Both the position numbers and the translations under genes were made by a program. From Diplocarpon mali (Eukaryota > Ascomycota > Leotiomycetes > Helotiales > Drepanopezizaceae): 64,000 bases of DNA. The notes under the pieces are model-generated. The model was not told the DNA's origin and made no database searches. It worked only from the letters and a program-made list of their open reading frames with translations. The stretch's first letter is position 1. Every line of letters begins with the position of its first letter. Below, one piece after another: positions 4,881 through 62,528 of this stretch. The DNA lies in assembly GCA_024741835.1 (NCBI GenBank), contig JAENRP010000065.1:1-64000 (forward strand). The letters run 5' to 3'.

Positions 4881-4904
4881 ACTTATAGTCCTAGATTAGA
4901 AGTT
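4881..4904 (+). repeat. GC palindrome, orfB1 copy 1, site 1
   Basis: Reads T-Y-S-P-R-L-E-V in the orfB1 frame. The equivalent in copy 2 is lost with the 0.7-kb deletion. Confidence 0.7.
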
Positions 4905-6266
4905 AGAAACGAGAATTTTAAAACTAGACCTAACCTACCTCTTATTGAAATAATTCTAGAAACTGCTATTAAATAAACTGCTTAAACGCTTAGCGCAGCC
5001 TCTTTAGAATTTTCAAAATCTTTAAAGGACTCTCCTCTAGTTAAACGACCTATTTTAGCTCAACCTTTAAAAAGGATAGATCGTTTAATAACTACCTTAG
5101 CTAATTTACAATTTAAAACTAAAGAATTGCGCGCTCGCTTAGACTCCTTCCTTAACAACTTAAAGGAGCTAGTTCTTAACTTCTTTATATCTATATATAA
5201 CCGTTTTAGAAATAATAATATAAGGGAAGACCTTATTCCTATTACTTTAAAAATAATTAAAAGAGCTATTAGATAGATTTAATAGCTTATCTTAAATAAG
5301 TTTGCCCTTATAGATATTATTCAATTCTTTAATAATTATAAAAGTTAAGAACCTAGTCTCTTAGATGCTAAGCAAGACTATTTTATCTTATAAGAAAGAG
5401 AATGCAAAGAGGAATCTATTAATTAGGACATTTATAATTATAGTAATATGCCTCAATCGGTTATTCTTAACCTTAAGCTTAAAGAATAATATAATATTCA
5501 AGTGTCCTTTATAATAAAGACTCGCTTTCGATAGTATCTTCCTAGTATAAGAATCGAAGGGAGAAGACTTTGCGACCTTTATATTTACTCTCTTTCGGTT
5601 TACTATAGTCTTAATTATAAAGGATTTAATATTAACGAAACTATTAAATACCTTAAACTTTTCTATATAGTAGAAGATATCGATCTTTTTCTAATTTACC
5701 TTAATAATTAGTTCTTTATCTCTTTAAGGATACGCAAATCCAACCTATTGATAATAGAAGTATCTTTAGGTACTGCAAAATTCAAGGCTAATCCTAAAGC
5801 CTTAAAGGCGTTAGAGCCGATTAAATAGAACAATTCTTTCTTTTTAATATTATTAAGTAATAAATAGCAAAAGGAAATAGAGGAAGAAGGGTCAAGTGTA
5901 ATGCCTGAACCCTTTGGATACCGCTTCCTAACCGACAATTTTACTACTAATAATAGTGCTTTTATAAGTATATTCCTTTCTATTATAAGATAAGAAGTAA
6001 AGATATACCTTTATTACTTCCGCCTTATGGATAACGCGACCTTTATACCTTCTTATTTTCTTTATAATATAATATTCAGTCTTACTTAACAAATCCTTTG
6101 GATGCATTATAGACTCTACCTCTTAGCTATAATAGTAAAAAGTAAAGGAGCCTATTAGCTTATGGCCTACTCCGAACCTCCCTAATTAATTGGCCTTAGT
6201 CTTTATAATCAAGTCATTTCAATAAAAAGAGATATAAGTACTACTAATAAAGAAATTCCGATTTTC

Positions 6267-6290
6267 ATTTGCAATTCTGGCCTACGAGTC
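6267..6290 (+). repeat. GC palindrome, orfB1 copy 1, site 2
   Basis: Reads I-C-N-S-G-L-R-V, in phase. Its partner in copy 2 (24521) is T-R-S-P-G-P-R-V; all differences are C-to-T or G-to-A, so copy 2 shows the older, more palindromic state. Confidence 0.8.
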
Positions 6291-7151
6291 AATTTTATTA
6301 AAAAGCAAGTCTTAGATTATCAGATCCTATTAATTAGATAAAGGCCAGCTTTTAAAAGCCTTAATAGATAGGTCGGCTTTTAATCGAATATGAAACTTAT
6401 TCTATTTGGGAAGAAGATAAGTCGATAGACTTCTTAAGCACTTAGTTCAAAATCTCAATTAGCTTAAATGACTGCGAAATTGAAGCGAAAGGAGATCTTG
6501 CGACCTATTATTAATAATAGCAATCCAATTATAGTAATAATAAAATAGGAATACCTTTTTAAAATGCTTTCGGATAATTCTTATAGGACTAATGGTTTTA
6601 TAGCCTTTTGCAATAACTATATAGCTATTTGCAATAAGAATACTTTGAAAAATGAGACTCGAATTTCCGATTTTATCTTTTTAATCTCTACTTTAAAGCA
6701 ACCTCTAGTACCTTGATAAATTAATGCAAATAAAACCACTGCACCTTTTAAGGTAGCTTTTCATCTTGAGAACTATAGTAGCCTTTCTAAAGCTATTATT
6801 AGTTAATGCTCTTAAATAGATCTATCGGTTATAATCGAAGTATAGGAATTATTTCTTCTTAATAAAGACGAATTGAAAATCCACTTTGCAGAATATAATT
6901 AAAAGCTCTTTAATGCCTTTATTAAAGCTTAAACGAACGTTACAAATACTAAGTCGCTTCTTTATAAACTCAAGTCTTAAGGATAGCGCGATAAAGTAAA
7001 TGCTATCTAAAAGCCTAATATACTAATTGATAAAAGCATTATTATAAGAAAATTCGGAAAAGAGATAAACCGAGACGCTAGTATAATATTAGACCCTAAT
7101 TTGGGAACCAATCCCCTGTTTTTACCCTTAAGCTTAGAAACGCTAAGACTG

Positions 7152-7175
7152 ACTCGCGAGCCCGGCCTATGAGTA
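7152..7175 (+). repeat. GC palindrome, orfB1 copy 1, site 3
   Basis: Reads T-R-E-P-G-L-stop-V in phase; the TGA is a RIP-type change of CGA (Arg), intact in copy 2 at 25406. Confidence 0.85.
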
Positions 7176-7394
7176 AGGTTGGACTTAGCTGGCTTAAGCC
7201 TATAAGATAGTTTAGATAAACCTTAGTCACTAAATCTAAGGGTACTAATAGAAGATCCTTTAAAAGAGGTCCCTAAAGCTAAGAAATCGCCGAGAAATAA
7301 GAACTAATATAAGAGAAGAAGACTCTAAAGTGACGATAGAACTAACAATTAAGTCGACTTAAGCCTAGAGAATCAAGTCTATCCCCCCTTTTGA

Positions 7395-7934
7395 AAACCA
7401 TTTAAAGAGATTGCAAATTAAAAGTTGAATTTTTTTAAGATTATCTACTTTCTATATACTAGCACCTCTTTATTCTCTATTCATTATTCTATTCTATATA
7501 TATTCTTTACTTTACTTCGTTCTTTATATAATCCATCCCTTGATTATTTCCTTTATATACAACTTTCTAACGCTTACCTTTAAAATATTATCCTTACCTT
7601 TGACAATTATCATTTACCAATTATAGGTCCTTGTATGCGTTATACCCTACTTTTGTTCCCACTTCCAGCCTCTTTATACCCACTTTTCCTTTATGCACTA
7701 GTGCGATTCCAAACTCTATAAATAAGCCTCTCCTCGCACTACGATTTTACTTTTTTTTACTTTTTCTACAACCCTATAATACCAATACCACTACTACTGT
7801 CTTCTATTATCAATTCTTTCCTAGTACAAGCTTACTATCTTATTAATCTTTCCTAAATAAGCCTCTATATATTCTATTATCCTATCCCTGTCAAATACTT
7901 TACTATAGCACTACTAAACTCAAGCAAGAGAACC
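7395..7934 (+). promoter_or_regulatory. orfB1-orfB2 spacer with TATA box
   Basis: About 540 bp, strongly pyrimidine-rich and without a long frame. A TATA-like CTATAAATAAGCC at 7716-7728 is conserved at 25969-25981 in copy 2 despite heavy mutation around it, and is followed by CT-rich sequence up to the orfB2 start. This is the arrangement expected of a promoter for orfB2. A short open stretch at 7631-7846 is low-complexity and not counted as a gene. Confidence 0.45.
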
Positions 7935-8792
7935 ATACCTAAGAAGAATATGTCAGTTGTTGCCTTAAGCAGCAAGTTAATAAACACCTCTAGCAATAAG
8001 CTAATATTAAAGGGTGGCTTTTCATAAGAAGGCAAGTTACTAAGATCATTAGAAGATATAATAAGCACTTATAGAACGTTAGGTAAGATAAAACAATAGG
8101 TATTCCTAAACTCATCTATTGAAGTATTAAACTATAGAATCTCTACGGTTAAAGAAGGATTTTTAGACTTTAATGATTTTCTTAAGAATAAGCTTAAGAT
8201 AAAGGGAATTGATTATAAAAAATTTCTATAAGAATATCAAAGGTATGCTAATTCAATCGATCTATTTTAAAAGAATCGAAATAAGAAAAATGAGTGTATA
8301 AAAAGATTATTGCAGTTTATAAGTAGTACCTATAGTACACTTTTTCAGATATACTTTATAACTAATATTACTACTAATAATGCCCTATAAGGGCTTGGCA
8401 AAATTTTTAAGATATACTAACTAGTAGCAAAGGCCATATAGGTATTGAATTATTTCACTATCTAAAAGGGTATAAAAAAGCTATAGGAAAACAGTACGCA
8501 AGGCAGAAAATTTATAGGTTTCTCAAGTACTATTATACACTTGGCCATTCAGACAATGAAAGACACTCTATTATAGCATAACAATTTAACCCTCCTAGAT
8601 CAAACTATTCTAAATACCCTCGGCCTATAACAGTCTTAATATAGTTTACTTATTATAAAAGATAAGATAATATATCTAGCTAAGTATACTATAAACTACT
8701 TTAATAATAAAACAAAGAGATAGGAATTTGTTATACCAGCTATCTTAAAGTTACTACTAATAGTAGTAGAATCGATAAGTAAGCCTGAATTG

Positions 8793-8816
8793 ACCCGTGG
8801 GCCCGGCCCATAGGTA
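8793..8816 (+). repeat. GC palindrome, orfB2 copy 1, site 1
   Basis: Reads T-R-G-P-G-P-stop-V; the TAG is a RIP change of CAG. One of the least decayed copies. Confidence 0.85.
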
Positions 8817-8978
8817 GAAGTACTATATAAGGAGGATATCCCTAAGCCAGAGGTGCCTGTAATACCTAGAACTCAAATAGCTAACTATTGCGATCACTAA
8901 TTATCAGACTTAGACAAGTTTGATTCACTGTTTCTAGAGATGCCCTAAACACTTAGAATACTAGTAGTAAAGAAGTTG

Positions 8979-9002
8979 ACTTATAAGCCTAGCCTATAGG
9001 TC
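8979..9002 (+). repeat. GC palindrome, orfB2 copy 1, site 2
   Basis: Reads T-Y-K-P-S-L-stop-V in phase; partner at 27240 reads T-R-G-P-G-L-stop-V. Confidence 0.8.
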
Positions 9003-10208
9003 ATCTCATATAATAATATAGACTTTAAAGATAATCTGATAAATGAAAAGAATAACCCTATTACTAATGTGATAGAAATTTTTAATAATACTAAGAAGGA
9101 CACATCTGATATTATATAGACCTTTTCTAAAGACTTGTAAAAATTTGTTTTGAAATTCTATAAGTTAATAATAAAGCGTTTGAAAAAGGAAGGTCAGGGA
9201 GAAGTTTTACTAGCATAGGAAGTAATAGTAAGAGCTATTAAATAAATCATAAAGCTATAATAAGACGAATTTTCTATAGACAATATTATGCATTTCTTTA
9301 TTAAGTATAAGAAATCGAAGGGCGCCTACTATATCCTTAAAGAAAAGCCAGAAAATAGTATGACAATTATCTTTATAAAGTGCTATAAAGTTTCCTTTAA
9401 TATTAAGATAATACTTTAATATAGTAATAGATTTAAGATTGTAGTAATACTAAAAATAAAGATATAATTAAGCAAATTTGTAATAGGGATATTCGAAGAC
9501 TTCAGTTTCGAAAAATTTTATGCTCTATATAAATGATAATATATATAATATTATAGGCTAATAATAGTATCTCTAACTAATAAGTAAGTTTCCTTTAATA
9601 TATATAAATTTTATACTACACCCGACCTAATTCTATTCTTATTATACTTTGGAAACTATGCAATTATAGCCATTAGCAATAGAAGGGCCAACCAAATTAA
9701 AAAAGATATATCGTTAGGTTTCTCTAAGTTTAGAGTAGCACCTAAGGCCCTTAAATTATTCTATAATATCGCTTGGACCCCCGCCTGGTATAAGACTATA
9801 CTAACTAAGGACACCCTAATATTACTCTATACCAAAGGTTTTTTAAAGATGCCTAAGTTATTAAGTTATGCCTTCTTAAGCACTATGCGTACGTATGGTA
9901 CTAATAACCGTAGAAGGAATTCCTTTTTAATATTAGTATAAGAAGAGCTATAAATGTACTGATATCATTTCCGGACTTCTAATAAAAGGCCTTTCCCTCC
10001 TTTTACCTTTCTTTATAATATGACTTACAGCTTGATATAGCAGACCTTAAGGATGTACTATAGTCTATATCTTAGTGCTCTATTGACTTATTATAATTCT
10101 TTATATAAGCTGATAGTATATCCTAAGCCTGTATAGTTTATAGGTATTAACTACTATTTGCGAATTATTTCTATTAAGATTAATACTAACTTAAGATTCG
10201 TAAGGTTG

Positions 10209-10232
10209 ACTCCTAAGCCTAGCTCGCAGGTT
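10209..10232 (+). repeat. GC palindrome, orfB2 copy 1, site 3
   Basis: Reads T-P-K-P-S-S-Q-V in phase. It lies just after the ISIK block, about where site 2 lies in orfB1. Confidence 0.8.
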
Positions 10233-11030
10233 AATTCTCCTAATAGCAGAACTATTAACTATTATATAATTCCTACTATTAAACAATCGATTAAGGAATT
10301 TGCTATATAGGAAAAGTCTTATAAGTCATCTATACTTATATCCTATTGTCTTAAGAACTCTTAGTAGATCTTGCTAAATTTAGTATAAAGCGCAGCTTAA
10401 TAGAAAGAATTGAATACTAAGGATAGAATAATTATAAAGGAGTACATTTCTAATAAGACTACTCTATTCTTAGTATTTATAAGATAAGGCACCTTCATTG
10501 ACCTAGACTCTAATAGAGAACTTAGAAAGGGTGGTTTTCTTACCATTAGTAACAACTATACAAAAGTTATTAGCAATAAATCACTTAAGAATAGCACTGA
10601 CTTAAAAGAATTCATTATCGATTCCATCTATATAAAGAAACTAAGTATAGTAAGATAGAGTATTATTAAAGAATCCTTAGCCAAGTTTTATATAACACTT
10701 AGTATGATAAAAGGTAGTCTACTATCAGACGCTCTTATAGGAAGACAATTATAAAATAATCCATTAGTAGTAATAACTATAAAGGATTTATTCGCAAAAG
10801 ATATATCTTAGCTAATAGCATATCTAAAGAAGTATAAATAAGAACTTTTTAAAGATTTTGCCAATATTTAAAAGCTAGTTTAATAACTGGAGCTATAATT
10901 ATATAGTAATAAGTCTTAGACAAAGACCAAAGATATAGATAATAATATTAAAGCTAATAACCTAATTAATAAGACGATACTTCTTAAGAAGTATAGTATT
11001 AAAAAGCCTTATGCAAAAACCCCTAATACA

Positions 11031-11054
11031 ACTCCTAGGCCCGGCCCGCAACTT
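11031..11054 (+). repeat. GC palindrome, orfB2 copy 1, site 4
   Basis: Reads T-P-R-P-G-P-Q-L in phase; left half is ACTCCTAGGCC. Confidence 0.8.
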
Positions 11055-11141
11055 AATCTAACAAAGGGCAAGGCCAAGGAAGTAGTATCCGTAGAATCTC
11101 CCGCCTCCTCCTCCTCTATCACCGACAATTCCCCTAAGGAT

Positions 11142-11165
11142 AATAATAATAATAATAATAATAAT
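11142..11165 (+). repeat. AAT microsatellite in orfB2
   Basis: Uninterrupted AAT triplets coding for Asn. Copy 2 near 29400-29440 has a shorter, interrupted version. The length change stays in frame. Confidence 0.9.
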
Positions 11166-11381
11166 GCTACTATATAAGTCTCTCTCCCTATTAGTAGAAG
11201 CCGCCAAAGTATAGTAGCATCTGCTTAAACTACCGAAGCTCCTGCTATACTAAGACCTATCTCATCGGATACTAATAGCAATGCTATAAAAAGAAGTAGT
11301 CATTTAGCAAAAAGAGTATTATTTAATAATAGTTCTTCCTATCCTCTAAAGAGAACTAAGGAAAACTAATACCTAAGTTAA

Positions 11382-11731
11382 TTCTATTTTAATTGTTTTT
11401 ACGATTCTATAGCTTAGTTATTTGTTTTACTAGTTTCGTTTTCTAACTCCTAGGCCTANNNNNNNNNNNNNNNNNNNNNNNNNNNNNNNNNNNNNNNNNN
11501 NNNNNNNNNNNNNNNNNNNNNNNNNNNNNNNNNNNNNNNNNNNNAAAAAAACTCTTCTTTTTTTTTCTTTTACCTTTAATAATAATATAGCCCTAGTTTA
11601 GGCCTTTTAATATATTAGTTTTCTCGCACTTAGGATTTGCTAATAATTGATATACTATTGCCTTAACCTATATTATTTTGTATTCTTTGCTAATAGTAGT
11701 AGGGGCTACTACTTTTATTATTTAAGATATA
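11382..11731 (+). other. GB copy 1 3' UTR with assembly gap
   Basis: Non-coding tail between orfB2 and the 3' LTR. It begins a GC palindrome at 11446 (ACTCCTAGGCC) that is cut off by a run of N (11459-11544). The collinear stretch in copy 2 (29730-29751) is only about 20-25 bp, so the 86 Ns probably overstate the missing sequence. Nothing else of note. Confidence 0.8.
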
Positions 11732-11979
11732 TATAGAGACTTAAGAAGGATAGGTCTTGTAATATATATTATATAATTAGCGTAGGATAGTAGGAGGATA
11801 AAAGGGCCATCTTCTATATATAGAGATAGCGCGCATTACTATAAGTACTAAATATACCCTATACTTAGGACTTATTCCTAATATCTTATTTAAGAGAGCC
11901 CGCTTGTAGTACTTCCTCCTCTTGTTTTTAGGTCTTCCCTTAGGCCTATTCTTATGTTGTCTCCCCTCCCTCTTTTATA
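11732..11979 (+). repeat. 3' LTR of GB copy 1
   Basis: 248 bp, starting TATAGAGAC and ending TTTTATA (TG...CA before RIP). Matches 14956-15201 and 29937-30183. The right flank CTAATAGACG is RNase H of Copia A1. Confidence 0.88.
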
Positions 11980-12193
11980 CTAATAGACGATTCGGCTAAT
12001 TATTATAAAGAATAAAAAGATTAAGATAAGCCTTTGATATATCGAAATTAGTAATATATAGATCTACTAGGAGTACTAGAAAGGAAGCTTTTAGATAATC
12101 TACCTCCTTATTAAAGAGATATATATAGATAGGCTTATTAAGAACCTGGACTATTAGAAGTTTAAAAGCTTTATTTATTTATTAAACCTCTAG
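11980..12193 (+). pseudogene. Copia A1 RNase H, C-terminal end
   Basis: Last part of the Copia RNase H/Pol protein. With stops read as Gln/Trp it follows the family pattern ..T-[IR]..A-[FL]-D-I-S-K-[SL]-V-I.. then L-[LP]..K..I..L..T-[WL], ending with L-L-N-L and a TAG at 12191-12193. The same stretch continues uninterrupted from RNase H in A2 (32196-32414). The N-terminal remainder lies beyond the inserted GB copy, outside the window. Non-functional. Confidence 0.7.
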
Positions 12194-13852: not shown

Positions 13853-14955
13853 AATAGCTACTTATAGGTTCTTTTAATTAAGGATAAGTATAGCAGTATA
13901 CTCTAGACGTTCCTATTAAGATCGAAGGGCAAAGACGTAGTTATAAAGGTCCTTTAAGCCTTTAAAGCATAAGTGAAACGCTAATATAGGCTATCTATTT
14001 ATAAGATTAGGCAAAATAATAACACTTTAATAATCTCCTTAAGGGAAGACTCTTTTATAAAGTACTAAAGATAGGTAAAAGAGGAGGGAATCGATTTAGA
14101 GCTTACTCCTACCTATATATACTAACTAAATAGAGGCGCAGAGCAAGTAGGAAGGGAGTTGATTGAATGTTCTATTAAAATAAGGATCTACGCCAGGCTT
14201 TTAGTAAGCCTTTGGCCAAAGGTTATAAAGGCTGCTATATACCTTTATAATATTTCCCTACTTACTAAGAAGAAGATGATCTTATTAAGCAAGGCTCTCT
14301 ATAATTAGTTCAAGCAGTATTTTCGATTCTATAAGCCGCTGCTTATTAAGTAGATGATAGTAAGCTTAAAGCCTAACTAGAGTCGCATTTATATATATAG
14401 TACTTACGTATACCTTTTAATTAAAGAGAAGGAGGCGGAAAGGGATCGCCGAACCTTTAATATTGAATTATAAAGGCACTTAAGTTACTTAATTGGATAT
14501 ATTACCTTTAATATTTATAGAATCTAGGTTCCTATACTTTAGTAAGTAATAATAACTTATAATATCGAATTTGATAAGTCTCTCTTTTATAGTCCAGAAG
14601 CTAAGCACGTAAACCCTATATCGCGCTAGGAACTTAAGACGACCCTCTAATTAATTAAAGAGGGAGAGGGAGCTTAAGACGCTAAGTTCAAAGGCATTTT
14701 CGAAGAATTAAAGCTTATTATAAGGCTGAACGCAATCACTATAGAAGAAGCTACTATATAAGAAGAGCCTATATTATAGACTAATACTACTTTATAGCCT
14801 TTAACTAATAATATAAAAGGCCTTAACTTAAATCTAAATTCTTTAAAAGACCTACTTAAAAACTCAAGGGTAGAAGCAAGCGAATTGAAAGCCACTTTGC
14901 TAATCTTTAAAAAGGCAAATGGCGACTAAAGCTTAGGGGTAATAACTCCCTATAG
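13853..14955 (+). pseudogene. Copia A2 integrase fragment
   Basis: Integrase core and C-terminal region of a Copia Pol. The catalytic Glu motif L-N-R-G-A-E-Q-V-G-R-E-L-I (near 14120-14160) is intact. It is followed by the usual L-W-P-K-V-I-K-A-A-[IY] and Y-N-I-S-L-L-T-K segments and an F-D-K-S-L-F-Y-S-P block. Stops are TAA/TAG only. 5' cut by Copia A1, 3' interrupted by GB copy 2; Pol resumes at 30184. The antisense copy in A3 (about 35480-36600) confirms continuity across the GB insertion. Confidence 0.82.
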
Positions 14956-15201: not shown

Positions 15202-15958
15202 TTAGTGACCTACGCAGGGACCGATTTCTTAAGATTTCCGTCCTTATATAATCTTATCGATCTCTTAATTCGCAAATAAGAGATTAGCCTTTTGAAAAAT
15301 ACATCTTTAAAACACTTATAGCATTTTAATCAACTTTAAAAACCTTATCCTTAATCGCTTAATTACTTAAAACTATCGATTTTCGTTTAGCAACTATTAA
15401 TAACCTTAGATTTTCCCTTTTTAGCTTTGCTTCGAAAACCCCTATTTTCTTCTTTAACTCTGAGATTTTCAGAATTTTCGGCTTCCTAATATGAAAAGTT
15501 TGGCAAACCTTATAATAGCAATCTTAAATAGCAGTAGTTTCAAGTATTTATGTAATACCAAGCGCAAACTCCAATTGGAAGTGCCTCCTTAGAATCTTTA
15601 AAAATCCGAATCTAATAATTCAGCTGCCTTAGCTTAATAAAACTCTAAAAACTGCCTTAGAATCGTCTTTAAAGACCCTTTTATTTTAAAGACTAATAGG
15701 AATTGGCTTAAAGGCTAAGAAGAACCTTATATATAAACCTTATCTTAGAAATTAGTCTTTAATTAAGTAAACCTTATCTTATTACAATTAGTTGCAACGC
15801 TCCTATTAGCTATTTAATACTTATTTAAAATCTCTTAGCAAACTCGGATTAAACTTTTAATAGAATCCGGAATTCTACTCCTAGGCCTAGCCTATAAGTA
15901 GGAGGATAAAAAGACATCTTTAAACAACTTAAGACTACTACTTACTTTTTTAATATTA
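15202..15958 (+). other. GB leader (5' UTR)
   Basis: About 750 bp between LTR and gag ATG with no sustained frame. Contains one GC palindrome at 15877-15900. Confidence 0.65.
15877..15900 (+). repeat. GC palindrome in GB leader
   Basis: ACTCCTAGGCC arm then TAGCCTATAAGTA; upstream of the gag ATG, so this copy is not coding. Confidence 0.8.
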
Positions 15959-18770
15959 ATGCTAGAAAATATTAAAAATAATAATAATTTTAAACTTTTT
16001 ACTATCCCTTTATTTAAATCTTTTCAAACTTATCCTAATTACTTTAAGATTAACTTAGATTCCGAACGTTCTTTAAGTCCTTTTGAATTTCGAAGTACTC
16101 CTCTTAGCAACTAATTACGCAATATCAAAGCTTCCCCTTTACCCCTTATAGATTCTATTAATCCAAACGGTTAATATAAAACGATAATAGCTGCATTTAA
16201 GGCTATTATTAGCCACTTTCCCTTTCCTAGTTCCCTTAATGCTTCTTACTTCATAGGAGCTAATATTACTAATTTCCTTAAGTAATATAAGGAAACTTAT
16301 TACGATTTTAGTATTTTATAAGCGGATATGATTTCTTAGCTCCCTTATAACTATAATTATATAAGTAAAGATATTATCAAATCCCTCCTTAAATAGAAAA
16401 CGCATAGTTTATAAGAACTCCTTATTAAGGCTCTTAAGTCTGAATTCTAAGAATTTAATAGATAGTAGATTCGCAATACTCTGGCTTTCTTAAAGGAATT
16501 TATTCTAATCACTCAGACTCCTATAGAACTTAAGAACTACTATTAGACTTTTACTTATATATTAAATACCTTAATTAGCTAGAAAATACTTAATAAAGTT
16601 AAAAGAGGCCGCCTTTTCTTACTTAGATTACCTACTGGCCTTTGAAATAAGATCATTAAGCATTTTAAAATTAATAAATAAGACCTTATAACCTTTGCCT
16701 TATTTAAGGAATTCTTAGCCTTTACTTTAAAATCAGATCTTAGTAAGAGAACTATTAATACTATAGAGTAGGAAAAAGCCCCTACTCCCTCTTATACTAA
16801 AGACCTTAAAAGCCTAGTCTAAGAATACTCAAAGGCTTTAAAAGTTATAGAAGAGGTAAAGAAGAACTTAGTAGTTATACCTTTCACTTGCAGGCCTGAC
16901 TTAAGAGTAAGATCCAACCTTAGAATTAAGGAACTTAAGACTTAATTTATAAAACTCTAAATCTAGAGCTTGAAAATTAGGATTAATAATCTCTTATAAG
17001 AAAAATAGCATATTTCCTAATTTAATAATAAGTAAAACTCAACCACTATAAGCCAACCTAGTAGTTCCTATTACTAGACTCCTACTTCTTATCATTTAGA
17101 ATAACTAGCTAATATAAGAACTTAATAGTTAATTAAAAGAGGAGAAGTTGATCTTAACTAACACTCTGCTAATATTAATACTATAAGGTATTAAGGAAAT
17201 AGCAATAGAAGACGACTAACCTACAACTTTTATAATAATAAAGAACTTAATTGCACTTTATATAAATATTATAACAATTACCCTCTTTTCTATCGTTTTA
17301 TTAATACTAGGATTATATATATTAATAAGTATAAGATGCTTTATATTAAAGATCCTAAGCTAGACGCTATCCCTATTAAAAAATACTAGAATCATTTATA
17401 ACTATAGACTATTCGAATAATAATATACGGTATAAAGTAGGATAAAAATTTAGCTAAACGGAAGCGCATTATCGAAATCAATTCTAAGGTCCTAACTTAT
17501 ATATATATAAGTCTAACTAATAATCTACCTAAGGGAGTGCTTATTAATTAAACTTCGAACTAGACTGCTATTAAAGTCAAAGGTATCTCTATTTTAAGGT
17601 AGGTTAATAATAATATATCTGCTAATATTAATACTACTTTTATATCTAGAAACCTTTAGAATACTTAGCGTCCTTCTAGATCTACTACTCTTTTAATACT
17701 AATAAAATCAGCTAAAGTCTAAAAATTAATATATATAACTTAGGAATCTTAATATAGAGTCTAAATACTAAAAGACACTTAATAGTCTAGAACCGCAGTA
17801 GATAAGGATAAAGCCGATATAGCAGACGAATTAATTAAAGATATAATAGATAAAGATAGCTTTAAGCTTAAAGATTAAGAAGTTAAAGTTATTGCATAGA
17901 CCCTTGACTTTAAGCGAAAGAGATAGATGTTAAAATAGGAAAAATTCGTCGATAAATACGCTAGTTTAATCGCAATAGAGAAAGTTATAGAGAATATTAT
18001 AGCCTAGCAAATTAACCTTATATTTAAAGACCTATTTGGTTTAATTAGACGCTTTGATAAAGTACTAGGAAAGTATATCCTAATTGCCTTTAAAGATTTA
18101 AATAATAATAAGGAAATGGAAATTGTAATATAAAAGAACTTTAAGAAGCACTTAGCCTTAATCAAATGTCTTTAGATTATAAAAGACAAAGGAACTTAAA
18201 GGTACTATAATATTATAGCAATAGCTTTAATATCTTAGAATATTAATCGAAATTGTTTAGCAATTATAATAAAAAGCCCTATTATTATTTATTCTATAGA
18301 AGAATCAGTTAAAGCAAAGGCTTTAATCGATTATAGTTCAGAAGTTTATATAATAATTAGAAAAGTAGTAGAAATAGCTTAATTGACAATCGTTAGCAAT
18401 CGACTCCTTATTTATTCGACTATCTCTAGATTAAAATACAATTTTAATAGATAGGTGAAAGATATAAAGGTTAAAGTTAGAGGAATTGTTAATTATATTA
18501 ACTTTCTAATAATAGAGAATTCTTCAAATGACATTCTTTTAAAAATGCCCTTTATTTTAGAATCTTAGCTAATATTTAACTATCTTAGAAATAGTCTTAT
18601 AAAAGCTAATCTTTAGAATACGGATCGATCTTTAAAAAGATAAATAGTTATCGCAAGAGATATAGCCGAATTCTAAAATAAGGTTTTGAGAAACGATTAG
18701 CTAGCATAAGGGCTAGGCTTAATACTAGTAAAAGAAGGCACTTAGCAAAGAATTATAGTAAAAGGAAGGT
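15959..18770 (+). pseudogene. GB gag-protease
   Basis: Gag of a gypsy-like element, opening with ATG 15959 (M-L-E-N-I-K-N, then an Asn run). One frame (frame 2) holds to about 18770, interrupted by Gln-to-stop changes. A Cys-rich zinc-knuckle relic near 17215-17290 has several Cys turned to Tyr. An aspartic protease site survives as A-L-I-D-Y-S-S-E-V near 18310-18345 (family L-I-D-[SC]-G-S-E-V, Gly lost). One GC palindrome at 16886 lies in phase. Pol follows in another frame, so a frameshift or separate start would be needed. Inactive. Confidence 0.75.
16886..16909 (+). repeat. GC palindrome in GB gag
   Basis: Reads T-C-R-P-D-L-R-V in the gag frame. Confidence 0.8.
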
Positions 18771-18801: not shown

Positions 18802-18825
18802 ACTTATAGTCCTAGACTAGGAGTC
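18802..18825 (+). repeat. GC palindrome in GB pol, site 1
   Basis: Reads T-Y-S-P-R-L-G-V in the pol frame; also present in the third copy at 61516. Confidence 0.8.
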
Positions 18826-18963: not shown

Positions 18964-18987
18964 ACTTATAAGCTAGACCTATAAGTG
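18964..18987 (+). repeat. GC palindrome in GB pol, site 2
   Basis: Reads T-Y-K-L-D-L-stop-V in the pol frame; also present at 61678. Confidence 0.75.
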
Positions 18988-20930: not shown

Positions 20931-20954
20931 ACTTACGGTCCTAGCCTGCGAGTC
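20931..20954 (+). repeat. GC palindrome in GB pol, site 3 (out of phase)
   Basis: Lies between RNase H and integrase. The pol frame crosses it as R-L-T-V-L-A-C-E-S, not T..V: the only intragenic copy in another phase. Confidence 0.75.
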
Positions 20955-22470
20955 AAATAAGAGGATTTTATTACCTAACTACTTAAGTGACTTTAAAGAA
21001 ATCGCGAAATTTTTAATTATATTTAAATGACTAAAGACAGTTGCTCTTAAGGATTTTCAAAAATTCAAAGCTAAAGCTCTAATTTATCTAATATAAGGAA
21101 GACAATTATTTAAAAGGAGTAATAACTTATTCCTTATATAACTCTACTTAAATAATGAAAAATTAAGGGCTAAAGCTATCTAGGATATTTATAAGGAAAC
21201 TAGCTATTAAGGAGTTAAGTCTACCTATTACCGACTCTTAAGGAAATTCTTTTAAAAGGGTTCTTTTAAAGACTATAAAGCTTTTGTAAAAAGTTGCGTC
21301 CCTTATTAGAAACGAAAACCTAGTTATAAAGAGAATCCCTTATTCCTAACCTAGCTATTAGGCCTTTTTTATAAAATCAGTCTTAATATTATATAAGTAT
21401 TAATAACCGAAAATAGGATTATATATTTTATTCTAATAAAGGAAGACCTATTAAGATAGCCTAAAGGACGACCTTTAAGATCTGCTAATTCTAAATCTAT
21501 TGCAAAGTTCCTTTAAGAAGATATAGTCTATCGTTATAGACTTTTTAATAGACTAACTATTAATAGAGGCCTTGAAAATAAAGAAGTAATCAAAGCTTTT
21601 TTGCGAAAATATAGTATTAAATAGGTTTAAATCTTAGTATATAACTTAAAAGCTAATAGAGTAGTAGAGCGAGGATATTGCGACATTCTTAATAGGCTAT
21701 CTAAAGTTACTTATAAAGGATTTAAGAATTAGATAAAACACTTTTATAAAATACTCTTTACTTATCGAACGATAATCTATAAACCGATTGAAGTTATACT
21801 ATTTTTCCTTATTTATAGTAAAGAGGCATAGCTCCCTCTTAAATCCTAATAGCTTATTTAAAGATTGTTTAATTATAATCAAATTCAAAACCGTTCTAAT
21901 TTACTTATAATAAGATATTAATAACTTAAGCTTTAAGATATAGATATAAAGGAAATCATTCTATAAAAGAAATAATATTAAGAAAAAGCTAAGGAAGCAT
22001 AGGCTACTTCTAAAGTACTTAAAACGTACCCTATTTAAAAAGATAATCTTATCTTAGTTTATAATATTATAAAAAGTATTAATATATTAGCAGATACTAA
22101 ACTTAACTATTGATAGCTTAGCTTATTTAAGGTTAAATCTAAGTAGAAAGAAAAGGAATACTATTCTCTTTAGAAACTTAATAAAATCGATATTAAAGGA
22201 ACTTTCGCAGCTAATCGATTAAAGCGCTTTTATTAATATAATTAAACCTTATTCCCTTTAAAAGATAAATCAGAAATTGATATAACCTCCGAATCCTTTA
22301 TAGGAACCGACGGCGATATAAGTAATTTTAAACCCTTAGATAAAGACTAAGATTTTTCTAACTTAACTTATAAGCCGGTCTTATAAGTAAAGAATATTAA
22401 AATACCTAACTAATCGCAACCTTAAGTTATTATTCTTAAAATATCCGAAGAATGCAAATAGGAATATTAA

Positions 22471-22985
22471 ACAATCTCTTAGCCTATCAATTGTCCTACC
22501 TTCTTCTAATCCTTGTTTTTACATTTTTAGCAAGGTTGCCTCCTTTATTATTTAAGATATGGATCTTTTAGGATTATCTTAAATTCTTGCCTACTTTAAC
22601 TTATTTTATATTCTTAATATTAGCCTTTAATTATAGCATTCTGTCGTGCAGAATGGGCGGAGTCTCCACTTATTCTGGAGACCCTCCACGTGACTCCTGC
22701 TGAGTCATAGACTCTCCCTTTTCTTTCCGAAGTCTCCTTACCATACATACACTAGAGAACAATACAATCAATCATCTTCATCCATATCAGCGAGCCTCCT
22801 AAGCGACCCAATGAAGGCCCTCCAGCCGACCGCACCACACATTCCTATTACTTTCTTTAAATAATAAATAAAAAGTCCAATTTCCTTAATATATATATAG
22901 CAAACCTATTGCAGCTTATATGCCCTTTTAATTCTTATATCCTATTGAACTCTCTTATTTATACTCCCTATCTTTCATAAGCAAT
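22471..22985 (+). other. pol-orfB1 spacer with inserted solo LTR
   Basis: Equivalent of 3731-4034 in copy 1, enlarged by a solo LTR. No gene. TATA-rich and CT-rich sequence precedes the orfB1 ATG at 22986. Confidence 0.6.
22642..22839 (+). mobile_element. solo LTR of Copia A with target duplication
   Basis: 198 bp from TGTCGTGCAG to ACCGCACCACA, flanked by CATTC at 22637-22641 and 22840-22844. Copy 1 has the empty site GCATTCCTATTAC near 3890. Nearly free of RIP changes and almost identical to the A4 LTR. Confidence 0.96.
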
Positions 22986-24520
22986 ATGCCTTTAAAGAAC
23001 TCATAAATGGTTTTATCTATTGTAATAGAAGATGAATAAATACTAATTATAAACTTCTCTTAGGACAGCAGAGCCATTGCATCGTTAGAGAGCTTCAAAT
23101 TGACCTATACAGCCTTAGGAGATATAAAGTAATAAAAACTCCTTTTAGCTTATGCGAATGCTATTAATAACCTTTCAACCTAAGTAGCCCTTGGAATTCT
23201 CCAATTTAACAACTTCTTAACTAAAGAATTAAGATTAAAGGGAATCTTTAAAAAGGAATTCTTAGCCGACGCAGATTAATATATAACCTTGGCTAATACT
23301 TTTAAAATAGACTAAGATAAAAGAGAAGAATCTATTTAACGACTGGATAATTTAGTTATTAATAAGAGAGGACTCCTATTTCATTCGCACTTCTTAACAA
23401 ATATTGATTCTAATAATAGAAGACGAGTATTATTAAAAATTCTTAAGGAAAATACTCTTACCGCTAGAGCTATTTAGATTCTCAATTTCTTTATCATTTA
23501 GGAAGGAGTAGTAAAATTCTAAGGCAATCGAATTCGCGGTCGTAGATTTGTAGGCCTATCTAATGCAATATTTATAGTAGCTGATAGGGCTATAAAAAGA
23601 TCAAATTAGGCTGCAGATATTACCCTACCTAATAGTACTATTGTTAATATACTAGGGCTCTGCGCTTCTGCTTATGGTTTGCTTATTTTAAGAGAGAACT
23701 GGACTCCTATGACGGGGTTTGGACGAGATTTCTTTGATGACGATATAACATTCAGGTGTCCTCTGCAATGAAAACTCGCTTTCGATAGTATCTTCCTAGC
23801 GCAAGAATCGAAGGGAGAAGACTTTGCGACCTTCATATTCGCTCTCTTTCGATTTACTATAGCCTTAATTATAAAGGATTTGATATTAATAAGACTATTA
23901 AACACCTCGAACTTCTTTATATAGTAGAAGATATCGATCTTTTTCTAATCCACCTTAATAATCAATTCTTTATCTTTTTAAGGATACGCAAATCCAACTT
24001 ATTAATAATAGAGGCATCTTTAAGAGCTGTAAAATTCAAGGCTAATCCTAAAGCCTTAAAAGCATTAGAGCCGATTGAATAGAACAATTCCATCTTATTA
24101 ATATTATTAAGCAATAAATAGCAAGAGGAAATAAAGGAAGAAGGGTCAATTGTGATGCCTGAACCCTTCGGATGCCGCTTCTTAACTAACAATTTTACTA
24201 CTAATAATAGTACTTTTATAAGTATATTCCTCTTTATTATAAGATAAGAAGTAGAGATATACCTTTATCACTTCTACCCTATAGATAATGCGACCTCTAT
24301 ACCTTCTTATTTTCTTTATAATATAATATTCAATCTTATTTAATAAGTCCTTTAGATATATTATAGACTCTACCTCTTAGCTATAATAGTGAAAAGTAGA
24401 AGAGCCTATTAGCTTATAGCCTACCTTAAACCTTTTTAATTGATTGGTCTTAGTCTTTATAATTAAGTCGTTTTAATAAAGAGAGATATAAGTATTACTA
24501 ATAAAGAAAATCCAATTATT

Positions 24521-24544
24521 ACTCGCAGTCCTGGCCCGCGAGTC
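24521..24544 (+). repeat. GC palindrome, orfB1 copy 2, site 2
   Basis: Reads T-R-S-P-G-P-R-V. Confidence 0.87.
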
Positions 24545-25405: not shown

Positions 25406-25429
25406 ACTCGCGAGCCCGGCCCGCGAGTA
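25406..25429 (+). repeat. GC palindrome, orfB1 copy 2, site 3
   Basis: Best-preserved copy: arms ACTCGCGAGCC and GGCCCGCGAGT around a central C, one mismatch from a perfect inverted repeat. Reads T-R-E-P-G-P-R-V. Confidence 0.92.
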
Positions 25430-25643
25430 AGGTTGGACTTAGCTAGCTTAAGCCTATAAGATAGTTCAGATAAACCTTAGTTACCAAACCTAAGGGTATA
25501 AATAGAGGTTCCTTTAGTAAAGGTACCTAAATTAGAAAAATCGCTAAAAGGTAAGAACTAATGCAAGAGAAGAAGACTCTAAAGTGATGATAGAACCGAC
25601 AATTGAGTTAAGCAATCTAGAGAATCTAGCCTATCACTCCTAA

Positions 25644-27053: not shown

Positions 27054-27077
27054 ACTCATAGGCCTGGCCTATAAGTA
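27054..27077 (+). repeat. GC palindrome, orfB2 copy 2, site 1
   Basis: Reads T-H-R-P-G-L-stop-V. Confidence 0.82.
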
Positions 27078-27239: not shown

Positions 27240-27263
27240 ACTCGCGGGCCCGGCCTATAGGTT
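27240..27263 (+). repeat. GC palindrome, orfB2 copy 2, site 2
   Basis: Reads T-R-G-P-G-L-stop-V; left arm ACTCGCGGGCC is the inferred consensus arm. Confidence 0.9.
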
Positions 27264-28469: not shown

Positions 28470-28493
28470 ACTTTTAGGCCTAGCTTACGGGTT
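28470..28493 (+). repeat. GC palindrome, orfB2 copy 2, site 3
   Basis: Reads T-F-R-P-S-L-R-V. Confidence 0.8.
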
Positions 28494-29291: not shown

Positions 29292-29315
29292 ACTCCTAGG
29301 CCTGGCCCGCAACTT
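29292..29315 (+). repeat. GC palindrome, orfB2 copy 2, site 4
   Basis: Reads T-P-R-P-G-P-Q-L, identical peptide to copy 1. Confidence 0.85.
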
Positions 29316-29639: not shown

Positions 29640-29936
29640 TATCTAGGTTAATACTATTTTTAATTATTTTTACAACTCTATAGCTTATTTGTTTATTTTA
29701 CTAGTTTCGTTTTCTAACTCCTAGGCCCGGCCTATAGGTAAAAAGCGTATAAAAAAAACTCTTCTTTTTTTTCTTTTACCTTTAATAATAATATAGCCCT
29801 AGTTTAAGCCTTTTAATATATTAGTTTTCTCGCACTTAGGGTTTGCTAATAATTAATATACTATTGCCTTAACCTATATTGTTTTATATTCTTTACTAAT
29901 AGTAGTAGGAGCTACTACTTTTATTATTTAAGATAT
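29640..29936 (+). other. GB copy 2 3' UTR
   Basis: Non-coding tail up to the 3' LTR; holds a GC palindrome at 29717-29740 (ACTCCTAGGCC + CGGCCTATAGGTA), the intact partner of the one lost in the N gap of copy 1. Confidence 0.75.
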
Positions 29937-53722: not shown

Positions 53723-54020
53723 CCCTTACTTAGACCTTACTCCGATTGACTTATAGTTAGGAAAATAATAACTATCCTTTTATGCTAATCTAACTCCTAA
53801 GTATCTCTTTAAATTAAAAACAATTAATTAATAATAACCTCTATTAAAATTATTAAACTCTACTTATAAGGTAGGACTAGGAGTCAATTTTCCTAAAAGC
53901 GTTCCTTTATAAGACTATATGACTTAACTTGCGGTCTAGGCCTAAGAGTCGATCTAAAAAACTTTCCTTTATAAGACTATATAACCTAACTCGCAAGGCA
54001 GGCCTAGGAGTCGTCCTTAA
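53723..54020 (-). repeat. Copia P 3' UTR with three spaced palindromes
   Basis: Palindrome copies start at 53862, 53927 and 53989, each preceded by a repeated stretch (CCTTTATAAGACTATA in the last two intervals). Periods are 65 and 62 bp, not multiples of three, so this is probably non-coding. Read on the minus strand they give T-P-R-P-A-L-R-V, T-L-R-P-R-P-Q-V and T-P-S-P-T-L-stop-V in different frames. Confidence 0.75.
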
Positions 54021-58172: not shown

Positions 58173-58539
58173 TATACGATACCAATTATTTCCTCTAATT
58201 GAGGTTATAAATAGTCTGATAGTATCGATGGATATTAGCGCTAGTATCGAATCTTTCTATAGACTAAGCTTAATTTGCGTTTGATTTTAAAGTTTTATTA
58301 GCTTGCAAATTCGGCATATTAAATAATCCTTTAGTACTTAGATCTTCTATTTTAAGGTCGAGACCTTATACAGGCCCTTTAATTTCTTTAGCCTTAAATG
58401 CGCGAATCTTTTATATATTAGCTAATACTTTAATAGGCTTTTAGCTTCTAATAGCTTTAGTAGCCTATTATTAGTTAATACTTTATTATTAGCGGCTAAA
58501 AAGGAATAGTAATAGTAGTTTAAGGTTTTGCCATTTTCC
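58173..58539 (-). pseudogene. Copia P gag-pre-integrase domain
   Basis: Minus-strand frame reads Y-K-R-F-A-H-L-R-L-K-K-L at about 58385-58425 (His codon at 58400-58398), then a C-x2-C-like I-C-R-I-C-K near 58300. Together these are the HxxxH..CxxC module of Copia pre-integrase/integrase N-terminus, with the Trp-His start degraded. It lies between the palindrome array and the miniature-LTR chain. Confidence 0.7.
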
Positions 58540-59049
58540 AATTGCAAGCCTAGCTTAGGAGTCGTTTTTAATAAAACCGCAAGATCTACTTACAGTCCTA
58601 GCTTAAGAGTCGATTTCCTGGAAATGGCGAGATCTACTTGCGGTCCTAGCTTAAGAGTCGTTTCTAATAAATTCGCAAAGTTCACTTACAGTCCTAGCTT
58701 AGGAGTTATTTCTGCAAATTTCACTTGCGGTCTTAGCTTAAGAGTTATTTCTGCGAATTTCACTTATAATCCTAGCTTAAGAGTTATTATTAGCAAATCT
58801 GCAGAATCCACTTGCAGTCTTAGCTTAAGAGTTATTTCTACTAAATTCACTTATAATCCTAGCTTAGGAGTCATCTTCGAGAATATATTGTATTCTACCT
58901 ATAGTCCTAGCTTAAGAGTCATTTTTACAAATTTCACTTGCAATCCTAGCTTAAGAGTCTATCTATTCTCCTTATTCTTACTTAATTGTATTAAGGCAAA
59001 GAGTGCACTTTCTTTAAAGGAATCCACTTATAGGTTTGGCCTAAGAGTT
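58540..59049 (-). repeat. in-frame array of 11 palindromes in Copia P
   Basis: Copies of the 25-bp palindrome begin at 58540, 58588, 58636, 58684, 58723, 58762, 58810, 58849, 58897, 58936 and 59026. Steps are 48, 48, 48, 39, 39, 48, 39, 48, 39 and 90 bp, all multiples of three. The array is open on both strands: minus-strand sense reads T-[LP]-K-L-G-L-[QR]-V repeats, plus strand T-C-G-P-S-L-R-V. Spacers of 14 or 23 bp are alike (I-S-A-N-F / I-S-T-K-F). It sits between protease and pre-integrase of P. Confidence 0.85.
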
Positions 59050-59112
59050 AATTTTTATAATATTACCTTTAAGATAATATAAATTCTATCTTTAATTTTA
59101 GCTTTAAAGATC

Positions 59113-60870: not shown

Positions 60871-61231
60871 TAAGAGCACTCCTCCTATCGAAAAGTTGAA
60901 ATGATTAAATAACAGGTATTATAGAAGTATTAAATAGGGAGGAAGTCCTCTTATCGAAAAGGGTTTTTAGGCTATAACGCAGGGAATCATACCTCCTATA
61001 AAATACAGTAAAGTAAGGAATCATACCTCTTGCAATACCAAAGGGTTATAGAGCAAGGAATCATACCTCTTATAATATAGGTTAGCTAAATAGGGAATCA
61101 TACCTCCTATTCGCCGATTGCTCGCCTCTTACTACAAGTCTTATTCAACTTCCTACTAATAGTTGCAGCGCAAGTGCTTTCCAAGGGAAGTTAATAATCT
61201 ATTATCGGTCTAGCTAGGGCTTATAACCTAT
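60871..61231 (-). promoter_or_regulatory. Copia P leader with four tandem motifs and primer site
   Basis: A GGAATCATACCTC[CT]TAT-type motif recurs at 60983, 61017, 61057 and 61094 (steps 34, 40, 37 bp) in the untranslated leader. The minus-strand primer site GGTTATAAGCCC (complement of 61217-61228) fits the anticodon stem-loop of initiator tRNA-Met after one RIP-type change. The motifs could be packaging or regulatory signals; that is inference. Confidence 0.6.
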
Positions 61232-61423
61232 TAAGCTTAAGTAAGTCGGCGCAGTAGGTAAAGGAGGCTTCTAAAGGTCGATAGTCGATATATTGGTAAG
61301 AGTTAAGGAAGGAAGGTTACCCCTTTCTTCCTTATAGCTATATACGTATCAATATCCTACTGACTAAGCAGTAGGGTCATATGATAATACATTAGAGTGA
61401 TGGCTGTATCACCCATCTCAACA
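61232..61423 (-). repeat. 5' LTR of Copia P
   Basis: 192 bp, less mutated than the 3' LTR; minus strand begins TGTTGAGATGGG. Confidence 0.92.
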
Positions 61424-61515
61424 GGGCTAAGCTTAATACTAATAAAGGAAGGCACTTAGTAAGGAGTTATAATAAAAGGAAGGTAAGTTTGCCGATTTTA
61501 AATAATAGCGATTTG

Positions 61516-61539
61516 ACTTGCAGTTCTAAACTAGGAGTC
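61516..61539 (+). repeat. GC palindrome, GB copy 3 pol, site 1
   Basis: Reads T-C-S-S-K-L-G-V in the pol frame. Confidence 0.75.
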
Positions 61540-61677
61540 AAATCTAGAATTTTGAAAAATAGTATAATTAGCGTTTTATCAGATTAATAATTAAAAAAAA
61601 AGAAAAATAAGGCAAAGAAGAGGGTTTATTTTACAAATTTCAATAATTTACTAATTATTTTAAAAAACCTAAAAACT

Positions 61678-61701
61678 ACTTATAAGCTGGACCCGTAGGT
61701 A
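61678..61701 (+). repeat. GC palindrome, GB copy 3 pol, site 2
   Basis: Reads T-Y-K-L-D-P-stop-V in the pol frame. Confidence 0.75.
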
Positions 61702-62528
61702 AAAAACAATAAAATTACTAATAATATTTCTATTTACGCACTTTAAATTAATAATTTAGAAAATCTTTTATTTATTTTTAAAAAGGAAAATTCAAACCGT
61801 TTTATAGGATTTGATAAAAAAGGAAAGAAGTAGAGAAGTATAGTATTAGCTAATATTCGAACTATATATAAAAGCAAGGCCGATAAAGTATAATTAGTAG
61901 ATTAGGGAATCTTTAATAGCTTAAAGCTTAAAGGATTAGATGATTAGTTTAAATAAGATAAGAAGCTTCGACCTTTAAAGCTAGGTAGTAAATTCGATAA
62001 GTTTATTATAGGCAGATTTTCTAATAAACCTATTAGATATCAGCTAATAAAAGAGCATTTCGATATACTGAAAATTAAAAATAACTTAATAAAGTAAGAA
62101 TGCAAACTACTTTATAAAACCTTAATAAATCAAAAGGACGCCTTAGCTTTTGACTAAATGGAACTTAATCAAATTCGAAAAGAGGTTATGCCTTATATTA
62201 AGATTAAGATAATACCTTATAAAGCCTAGTAAGAGAAAACATTCAAAGTTCCTAAAGCTTTTTAAGAAAAGGTAATCGAAATATTAAAGGATAAGCTAAA
62301 GCAAGGCATTCTCGAATTCTATAATAGCCCTTATAAGAATAAATGGTTCTTAATTGCTAAGAAAGAGAAGGAAACTTATAAACTAATAATAATAGTAGTA
62401 GAGATAAACTGAGTAATTATTAAGGATGCCAATATTCCTCCGAATATAGATAAGTTCTTAAATGAATTCGCAGGATTAACCTATAGCTCTCTTATTAACT
62501 TCTTCTTTAAATACAACTAATTCATTCT

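What the first reader, a model, noticed from the sequence alone, without database searches (positions are those of the whole stretch)
4881..61702. GC palindrome scattered through two retrotransposon families, almost always in the same reading phase
Seen: 36 copies of a 23-25 bp sequence whose best copies approach arms ACTCGCGGGCC / GGCCCGCGAGT around a central C. They occur in GB gag, pol, orfB1, orfB2, leader and 3' UTR, and in Copia P, two elements of different superfamilies; I found none in Copia A, Copia H or chromovirus K. Of 30 copies inside reading frames, 29 share one phase and encode T-x-x-P-x-x-[RQ]-V. Differences between copies at homologous sites are C-to-T and G-to-A, so the ancestors were more GC-rich and more palindromic. 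Known parallel: Rickettsia palindromic elements insert in frame in bacterial genes. I know of no fungal equivalent. Inference: a short mobile palindrome, or a sequence spread by gene conversion, tolerated because it adds eight in-frame codons.
Basis: partly seen in the sequence, partly recalled or inferred. Interest (0 to 1): 0.87.

Follow-up and report, generated by a model that had tools for sequence, protein, structure and literature searches.

The report
In-frame GC palindrome in fungal retrotransposons
A 23-letter near-palindrome occurs at several hundred places or more in one probably fungal genome, inside genes of unrelated jumping elements and, where the frame could be read, in the same reading phase; it looks like a tiny piece of selfish DNA hiding inside other selfish DNA, but how it moves is not known.

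Summary
The repeat is real. A mutation-tolerant pattern finds 32 copies in the window against 0.23 per shuffle; a weight matrix gives 40 where about 2 are expected. In the window's genome (49.4 Mb) a degenerate 23-mer has 940 forward and 944 reverse exact matches; the reversed pattern has none. Less-mutated copies fix the frame: Ty3 (Gag, PR/RT, RNaseH/IN linkers), Copia (Gag/PR, IN/RT linkers) and the ORFs of 'GB', read as T-x-x-P-x-x-x-V in both orientations (TPGPGPRV, TRGPGPGV). It also sits in a Copia 3' non-coding region and in a non-coding array. Copia relatives elsewhere (two whole linkers, one partial) and two Ty3 families of this genome lack it. So it is a nucleic-acid repeat rather than an ancient protein motif. 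No sampled copy was traced to non-repeated DNA, but the sample is small. No empty site was found within families (three sites, exact flanks); target-site duplications are not established. Best reading: a retroelement-associated, protein-coding palindromic repeat, behaving like Rickettsia palindromic elements, probably spread during reverse transcription and filtered by selection for frame. The mover is undemonstrated.

The parts
3619..3641 (.). palindrome copy behind the Ty3-type integrase of GB copy 1 (homologous to 22366); strongly mutated
4881..4903 (.). palindrome, N-terminal part of GB ORF B1 (less-mutated copy L007:111)
6267..6289 (.). palindrome, middle of GB ORF B1
7152..7174 (.). palindrome, C-terminal part of GB ORF B1
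8793..8815 (.). palindrome, extra N-terminal site of GB ORF B2
8979..9001 (.). palindrome, N-terminal part of GB ORF B2
10209..10231 (.). palindrome, middle of GB ORF B2 (aligns with the middle site of B1)
11031..11053 (.). palindrome, C-terminal part of GB ORF B2
15877..15899 (.). palindrome in another repeat (relatives L009, L051); frame not settled
16886..16908 (.). palindrome; element and frame not settled
18802..18824 (.). palindrome in a repeat shared with 61516
18964..18986 (.). strongly mutated palindrome, shared with 61678
20931..20953 (.). palindrome; possibly non-coding or in another phase (frame +1 open for 49 codons)
22366..22388 (.). palindrome behind the Ty3-type integrase of GB copy 2, in its frame
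24521..24543 (.). palindrome, middle of ORF B1, GB copy 2; no mismatch to the general pattern
27054..27076 (.). palindrome, extra N-terminal site of ORF B2, GB copy 2
27240..27262 (.). palindrome, N-terminal part of ORF B2, GB copy 2
28470..28492 (.). palindrome, middle of ORF B2, GB copy 2
29292..29314 (.). palindrome, C-terminal part of ORF B2, GB copy 2
29717..29739 (.). palindrome behind the ORFs of GB copy 2, short open frames only; probably non-coding
53862..54011 (.). tandem array of three palindromes (53862, 53927, 53989), spacing 65 and 62 nt, all three phases; not coding in one frame
58519..59082 (+). open frame of 187 aa with eleven palindromes in one phase (58540-59026), spaced 39 or 48 nt, the last one 90 nt
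61516..61538 (.). palindrome shared with 18802
61678..61700 (.). strongly mutated palindrome shared with 18964

Best explanation
A short repeat of about 23 bp (near-palindrome ACTC-S-CGG-K-CC-N-GG-M-CCG-S-GAGT, usually inside a looser RAWTYN...NRAWTY context) has been copied between LTR retroelements of at least three families and two superfamilies in one genome. SHOWN: it is a nucleic-acid unit that occurs coding and non-coding and in both orientations; the coding sites that I could frame share one codon phase and sit in inter-domain linkers, in Gag, or in the ends or middle of ORFs of unknown structure; it grows in tandem by whole codons; foreign homologues lack it. INFERRED: new copies arise while retroelement RNA is reverse-transcribed (template switching or priming at the hairpin between co-packaged RNAs). 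This would explain why the copies that I traced lie in repeats, mainly retroelements, why different superfamilies share it and why no empty site turned up. Selection then keeps the copies that leave the polyprotein in frame and working, and retrotransposition of the host element multiplies them. Having no CpA or TpG, the unit should escape RIP-type mutation and stands out as GC islands in the decayed copies.
For: Genome-wide 940 forward and 944 reverse exact matches to a degenerate 23-mer, 0 and 0 for the reversed pattern; 58 intact GC places, control 0. Ty3 'Z': in frame at PR/RT and RNaseH/IN (L040) and in Gag (L067). Copia 'P': in frame at Gag/PR and IN/RT, plus a copy 3' of pol (L065; RVT_2 at C185:1256-1975, E 2.8e-50). 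The same Ty3 Z site holds 1, 1, 2 and 3 units of 45 nt in four loci. Spacing of neighbouring copies is a multiple of 3 in 49 of 56 pairs; all 7 exceptions come from one array. One phase in 11 of 11 framed coding sites. Inverted copies (TRGPGPGV) in Copia Gag/PR. Three foreign Copia relatives keep the upstream flank of the IN/RT linker; none has T..P...V, and two of them cover the whole linker. Ty3 families X (4 loci) and Y (3 loci) lack it at both linkers; 7 of 7 other Copia stretches lack it. Of 30 RT loci 25 lack it; in a 26th (L051) it lies about 1 kb past the end of the homology with the RT family. No CpA or TpG in the consensus; window RIP indices 1.45 and 0.61.
Against: No empty site inside a family: 0 matches for spacers 0-30 at Ty3 RNaseH/IN against 10 occupied by one unit; 8 of 8 matches occupied at Ty3 Gag; 0 at Copia IN/RT (a range too short to see occupied sites, so it has no positive control). 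These patterns need exact flanks and see few copies. No significant target-site duplication in register (best p 0.15, 19 sites); a laxer test gave p 0.03 on 21 flanks, two pairs of which come from the same site. The mover is not identified, and no chimeric RNA or cDNA was seen. Some sites are related by paralogy, so independent events may be few: counted by element (four) the phase agreement has a chance of about 0.04. Coding sites were framed partly by eye. RNA hairpins beat shuffles clearly in 2 of 7 sites only. Confinement to retroelements rests on a sample.
Confidence: 0.55

Rival explanations
1. Protein-level signal: the octapeptide T-x-G-P-G-P-x-V is a polyprotein processing site or favoured linker, spread between elements by recombination and kept by selection on the protein.
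For: In Ty3 Z it lies at PR/RT and RNaseH/IN, in Copia P at Gag/PR and IN/RT, which are polyprotein junctions (borders partly by eye). One codon phase in 11 of 11 framed sites. The combination position 5 C with 19 G, which would remove both arginines, is seen in 1 of 104 copies.
Against: Synonymous positions are nearly fixed (position 3 is T in 98% of pooled half-sites) while non-synonymous positions 5 and 19 vary. A copy 3' of pol and an array in three phases carry the same palindrome. Other families with the same junctions have none. It also occurs in Gag and in GB ORFs.
Confidence: 0.2
2. Functional RNA or DNA signal of the retroelements (dimerisation or packaging hairpin, or a binding site for a host Zn2Cys6 factor, CGG-N7-CCG; the parallels are recalled).
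For: Strong nucleotide conservation, self-complementary core, several copies per element, hairpins more stable than shuffles at two of seven sites (z -2.8 and -3.3).
Against: Position 5/19 is mispaired in most copies (76 of 104 identical; Watson-Crick 16 against 45.0 expected). Copy number varies from 1 to 3 at one site. Other Ty3 and Copia families do without it.
Confidence: 0.1
3. A very short DNA transposon or HUH-type (REP-like) element moved by a transposase elsewhere in the genome, inserting at RAWTY sites with about 7 bp duplicated.
For: Symmetric flank consensus RAWTYN/NRAWTY; in the Ty3 Gag site AGATTCT and GGATTCT border the 23-mer directly in 2 of 8 copies, and the other 6 differ by one or two such letters; an orientation-giving mismatch recalls hairpins of HUH transposases (recalled).
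Against: Duplication not significant over sites. No copy traced to non-repeated DNA, and 9 of contigs C1-C18 have none. At the level of sites I do not regard the mismatch as significant. No transposase was looked for.
Confidence: 0.12
4. Chance or artefact of RIP on repetitive DNA.
For: The motif has no CpA or TpG and would survive RIP as a GC island.
Against: Shuffles give 0.23 copies against 32; 58 intact places against 0; present in little-mutated loci of 45-52% GC.
Confidence: 0.01

Closest known systems
Rickettsia palindromic elements and other protein-coding palindromic repeats (Wolbachia, Methanocaldococcus); seen in passages of PMC2996958, otherwise recalled
   Same: palindromic repeat placed in frame in unrelated ORFs, typically in unstructured parts of proteins
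   Different: those are in genes of bacteria and an archaeon and longer (recalled); here 23 bp, in a eukaryotic genome, and traced so far only to repeats, mainly retroelements; tandem growth by codons
Yeast mitochondrial GC clusters (abstract, introduction and Discussion of PMC4478555 seen)
   Same: short GC-rich palindromes, putative target-site duplications, one in the var (rps3) gene; reverse transcription suspected for spread
   Different: mitochondrial, mostly intergenic, 42 nt for GC42; no link with LTR elements in the parts seen
Ultra-short invasive elements of Podospora mtDNA and palindromic repeats of Volvox organelles (passages of PMC2670323)
   Same: ultra-short repeat; spread in Podospora proposed through an intron-encoded reverse transcriptase
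   Different: organellar; [quoted passage not shown]
PARCEL repeats (abstract and passages of PMC2996958)
   Same: tandem coding repeats with dyad symmetry, in some taxa linked with mobile elements
   Different: 25-residue amphipathic repeat defined by a protein HMM; the palindrome varies between sources
Bacterial REP elements (20-40 bp; abstract in the listing)
   Same: size, palindrome, high copy number
   Different: prokaryotic and extragenic; no transposase was looked for here

Membership tests
Protein-coding palindromic repeat (Rickettsia palindromic element type) | same palindromic DNA in unrelated ORFs | tested here: met
   Ty3 Z, Copia P, GB ORFs
Protein-coding palindromic repeat (Rickettsia palindromic element type) | in-frame insertion that relatives lack | tested here: inconclusive
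   absent from Ty3 X and Y and from the two foreign Copia relatives that cover the whole linker, but linkers align loosely, so exact insertion ends are unresolved
Protein-coding palindromic repeat (Rickettsia palindromic element type) | spread through ordinary host genes | tested here: inconclusive
MITE or DNA transposon | target-site duplication | tested here: inconclusive
   p 0.15 in register, p 0.03 in a laxer test
MITE or DNA transposon | empty sites among relatives | tested here: not met
   none found within families at three sites with exact-flank patterns
Mitochondrial GC cluster | located in mtDNA | tested here: not met
   copies lie on many large contigs, several inside LTR elements
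PARCEL | 25-residue repeat matched by the published HMM (DUF285) | tested here: not met
   two array ORFs gave no Pfam family at E 0.01 (window 58519-59082 and L033 5574-5999); units in the window array are mostly 13 or 16 residues
Bacterial REP element | mobilised by a RAYT/HUH transposase | not tested
   no search for such a protein was made

The most novel reading that the evidence does not exclude
A second-order selfish element: a 23-bp imperfect palindrome that parasitises the reverse transcription of LTR retroelements, jumping between Ty3 and Copia RNAs in mixed particles, and that persists because either orientation reads as a harmless eight-residue linker in the one codon phase selection keeps.
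Probability: 0.3. Interest if true: 0.82.

Novelty: new variant of a known kind. Interest (0 to 1): 0.62.

Why it matters
Coding palindromes have been described in bacteria and an archaeon, and short GC palindromes in organelles. Here one is tied to LTR retroelements of a eukaryotic genome, in high copy number, across two superfamilies and, where readable, in a fixed codon phase. If spread by reverse transcription holds, it gives a traceable marker of recombination between unrelated retroelements and a testable origin for ultra-short repeats, and it shows how inter-domain linkers of polyproteins can grow.

Tried and rejected
Longer palindrome: the outer RAWTYN/NRAWTY arms share a consensus but do not match each other as inverted copies (63 against 73.0 expected), so I treat them as context. 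Compensatory pairing: position 5/19 goes the other way. Empty sites: three pattern searches, none found; the first used a spacer range that could not include occupied sites, repeated with a longer range; one search has the same limit and was not repeated. Copies outside repeats: the most isolated hit looked at, C1:292109, proved to be in a repeat (40 matches including itself, 40 of 245 candidates scored). L001 (GC 0.66) and L075 (a viral contig of 70% GC) look like chance matches. The intact form has 0 exact matches in the prokaryote collection. Pfam: four pieces from the GB range and five GB pieces gave nothing above cut-off (one sub-threshold DUF7353, E 0.22). Papers: nine searches; I saw no nuclear retroelement palindrome of this kind in the rows listed, which for searches are only the first 12-15. 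Of four papers I saw abstracts, passages or one section (PMC2996958; PMC4478555; PMC7218506; PMC2670323). Host species not identified; 'fungus' rests on RIP-like indices and one relative in Podosphaera aphanis.
Full report
WHAT WAS CHECKED. The window belongs to a genome of 49,369,952 bases in 676 contigs (window = C65:1-64000). A scan that tolerates C/T and G/A, with the variable positions allowed, gives 32 copies; 30 second-order shuffles give 0.23 on average, 2 at most. An iterated weight matrix gives 40 hits at a threshold where about 2 are expected by chance.

GENOME-WIDE. The pattern ACTYSYRGKCCNRGMCYRSRAGT has 940 exact matches on one strand and 944 on the other; the same pattern read backwards has none. 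The pattern is nearly its own complement, so the number of places lies between 944 and 1,884. The intact GC form has 58 places, control 0, and 0 in a collection of 257 billion bases of bacterial and archaeal genomes. The listing is complete to contig C18: 9 of these 18 contigs (C2, C3, C5, C9, C11, C13, C14, C17, C18) have no exact match, although reverse-transcriptase matches lie on C5, C9, C13 and C18. Contig lengths that I saw fall with the number, so these should be the largest. In the fetched loci and the window, 118 distinct copies fall into 25 flank clusters, 16 of them with two or more copies. Of the nine singletons, seven lie in arrays or elements already seen, one (C1:292109) lies in a repeat, and one (window 16886) is untraced. 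This is a sample; I did not check the context of every genome match.

WHERE IT SITS. The window's elements are strongly mutated (RIP-type indices 1.45 and 0.61), so I used less-mutated copies elsewhere. Family Z, a Ty3 element (L040 and relatives; RVT_1; Integrase_H2C2), has two tandem copies between protease and reverse transcriptase in L040 and one to three between RNase H and integrase, all in the pol frame, and one in a 174-aa open frame of the Gag region (L067). A Copia element (L065; RVT_2 at E 2.8e-50) has two between the Gag zinc-knuckle region and the protease side and two between integrase and reverse transcriptase, all in frame, and one copy 3' of pol. GB has a Ty3-type integrase (my reading) followed by ORFs A1, B1, A2, B2. 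B1 and B2 are related (26% over 643 columns, E 1e-56); their middle sites align, their N- and C-terminal sites lie just outside the aligned part. The nine GB pieces tested reach no Pfam cut-off. Domain borders in L040 and L065 other than those named rest on my reading of the sequence.

PHASE AND SPACING. I could fix the frame for 11 distinct coding sites: Ty3 Z Gag, PR/RT, RNaseH/IN; Copia Gag/PR and IN/RT; GB integrase tail; GB B N-terminal, middle and C-terminal; the extra B2 site; and the 187-aa array frame at 58519-59082. All 11 read ACT as a codon. If sites were independent the chance of one shared phase is (1/3)^10, about 2e-5; counted by element (four), about 0.04. One site (20931 and relatives) may be in another phase or non-coding. 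Among 56 distinct pairs of neighbouring copies, 49 spacings are multiples of 3; the 7 others all belong to one array (L030, L033, L034, L073, window 53862-53989), which in L034 also has one spacing of 66. All three phases of the intact unit are free of stops (from the sequence), so stops do not explain the shared phase. Selection on the peptide, or copying together with some flank, must.

NUCLEIC ACID OR PROTEIN. In 104 distinct copies the ends ACTC/GAGT are almost fixed, including synonymous positions, while positions 5 and 19 vary between C and G and change the protein. Position 12, the centre, is free. The pair 5/19 is Watson-Crick in 16 copies against 45.0 expected: 46 are C/C, 30 G/G, 14 G/C, 1 C/G. 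The unit therefore has an orientation, and both orientations occur in coding sites: TPGPGPRV in Copia IN/RT and Ty3 sites, TRGPGPGV in Copia Gag/PR. At the level of independent sites (about 12) I do not regard the asymmetry as significant, because copies at one site are related.

PRESENCE AND ABSENCE. Three Copia proteins from other sources (P0002 and P0003 from metagenomes, P0004 from Podosphaera aphanis; 41-54% identity) align with the integrase side of the linker; P0002 and P0003 also align beyond it. None contains T..P...V; P0004 is short and diverges in the linker. A Ty3 relative (P0001) starts behind the linker and says nothing. Ty3 families X (4 loci) and Y (3 loci) of the same genome lack it in both linkers. 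Of 30 RT loci, 5 hold a copy: four of family Z and L051, whose copy lies about 1 kb past the end of its homology with family X. Seven stretches upstream of RVT_2 from other Copia copies have none; I fetched 7 of 150 listed, and some of the seven are of one family. The linkers are too variable to mark exact insertion ends. Within families I found no empty site: 0 with spacers 0-30 against 10 occupied at RNaseH/IN, 8 of 8 occupied at Gag, 0 empty at Copia IN/RT (which cannot see occupied sites).

FLANKS. Pooled half-sites show a context RAWTYN before and NRAWTY after the 23-mer. Direct repeats around the unit are suggestive in places (AGATTCT and GGATTCT in 2 of 8 copies of the Ty3 Gag site) but not significant over 19 sites (p 0.15); a laxer test on 21 flanks gave p 0.03. 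The inverted comparison is below expectation, so the flanks are not simply further arms.

MECHANISM. I commit, with moderate confidence, to a retroelement-associated coding palindrome that is copied during reverse transcription, for four reasons: the copies that I traced lie in repeats, mainly retroelements; two superfamilies share the same nucleotides; no empty site turned up within families; and a copy lies in a 3' region. The steps shown are: nucleic-acid unit, both orientations, in-frame coding sites, tandem growth, absence in relatives. The steps inferred are: RT-borne copying, selection for phase, and neutrality of the linker. A precedent for RT-driven ultra-short repeats has been proposed for Podospora mtDNA (cited in PMC2670323, passages) and is suspected for GC42 in yeast mtDNA (PMC4478555, Discussion). 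The chief rival is a protein signal at polyprotein junctions.

KNOWN OR NEW. It works like Rickettsia palindromic elements, but it is not filed as one: the host is eukaryotic, the unit shorter (recalled), and spread through ordinary genes was not seen in the sample. Nine searches of the paper library showed me no such repeat in nuclear retroelements among the rows listed. The library lacks most subscription papers, so this is weak evidence of novelty.

CHANGES AFTER CHECKING. An added call (83) tested the B1/B2 relation and the place of the L051 copy.

Noticed in passing
window 2394-11982 and 21141-30190: GB carries, behind a Ty3-type integrase, two related pairs of ORFs (A1 B1 A2 B2); B1 and B2 align over 643 columns; the pieces tested reach no Pfam cut-off and the function of such accessory ORFs is unknown.
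   Followed up: partly
   Followed up: no
window 13853-14955 with 35476-36578, and 30184-31586 with 34077-35479: Long inverted repeats (1.1 and 1.4 kb, 89% complementary), probably nested or inverted element copies.
   Followed up: no
window 1-2394 and 36772-39161: The first 2 kb have 50% GC and a 204-aa open frame; the 80% identical copy at 36772 has about 32% GC: apparently one repeat before and after C-to-T decay.
   Followed up: no
L082 (C358:41800-43200): Another Copia copy has a different repeat, E-D-N-Q/stop, in its integrase/RT linker, so this linker may be a hot spot for tandem growth.
   Followed up: no
L065:396 and L065:2355 (also L006, L069): The copy 3' of pol and the IN/RT copy of this Copia family share an upstream stretch like TTAAGGGGTGATTT, which resembles a polypurine tract; one may have seeded the other.
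   Followed up: partly
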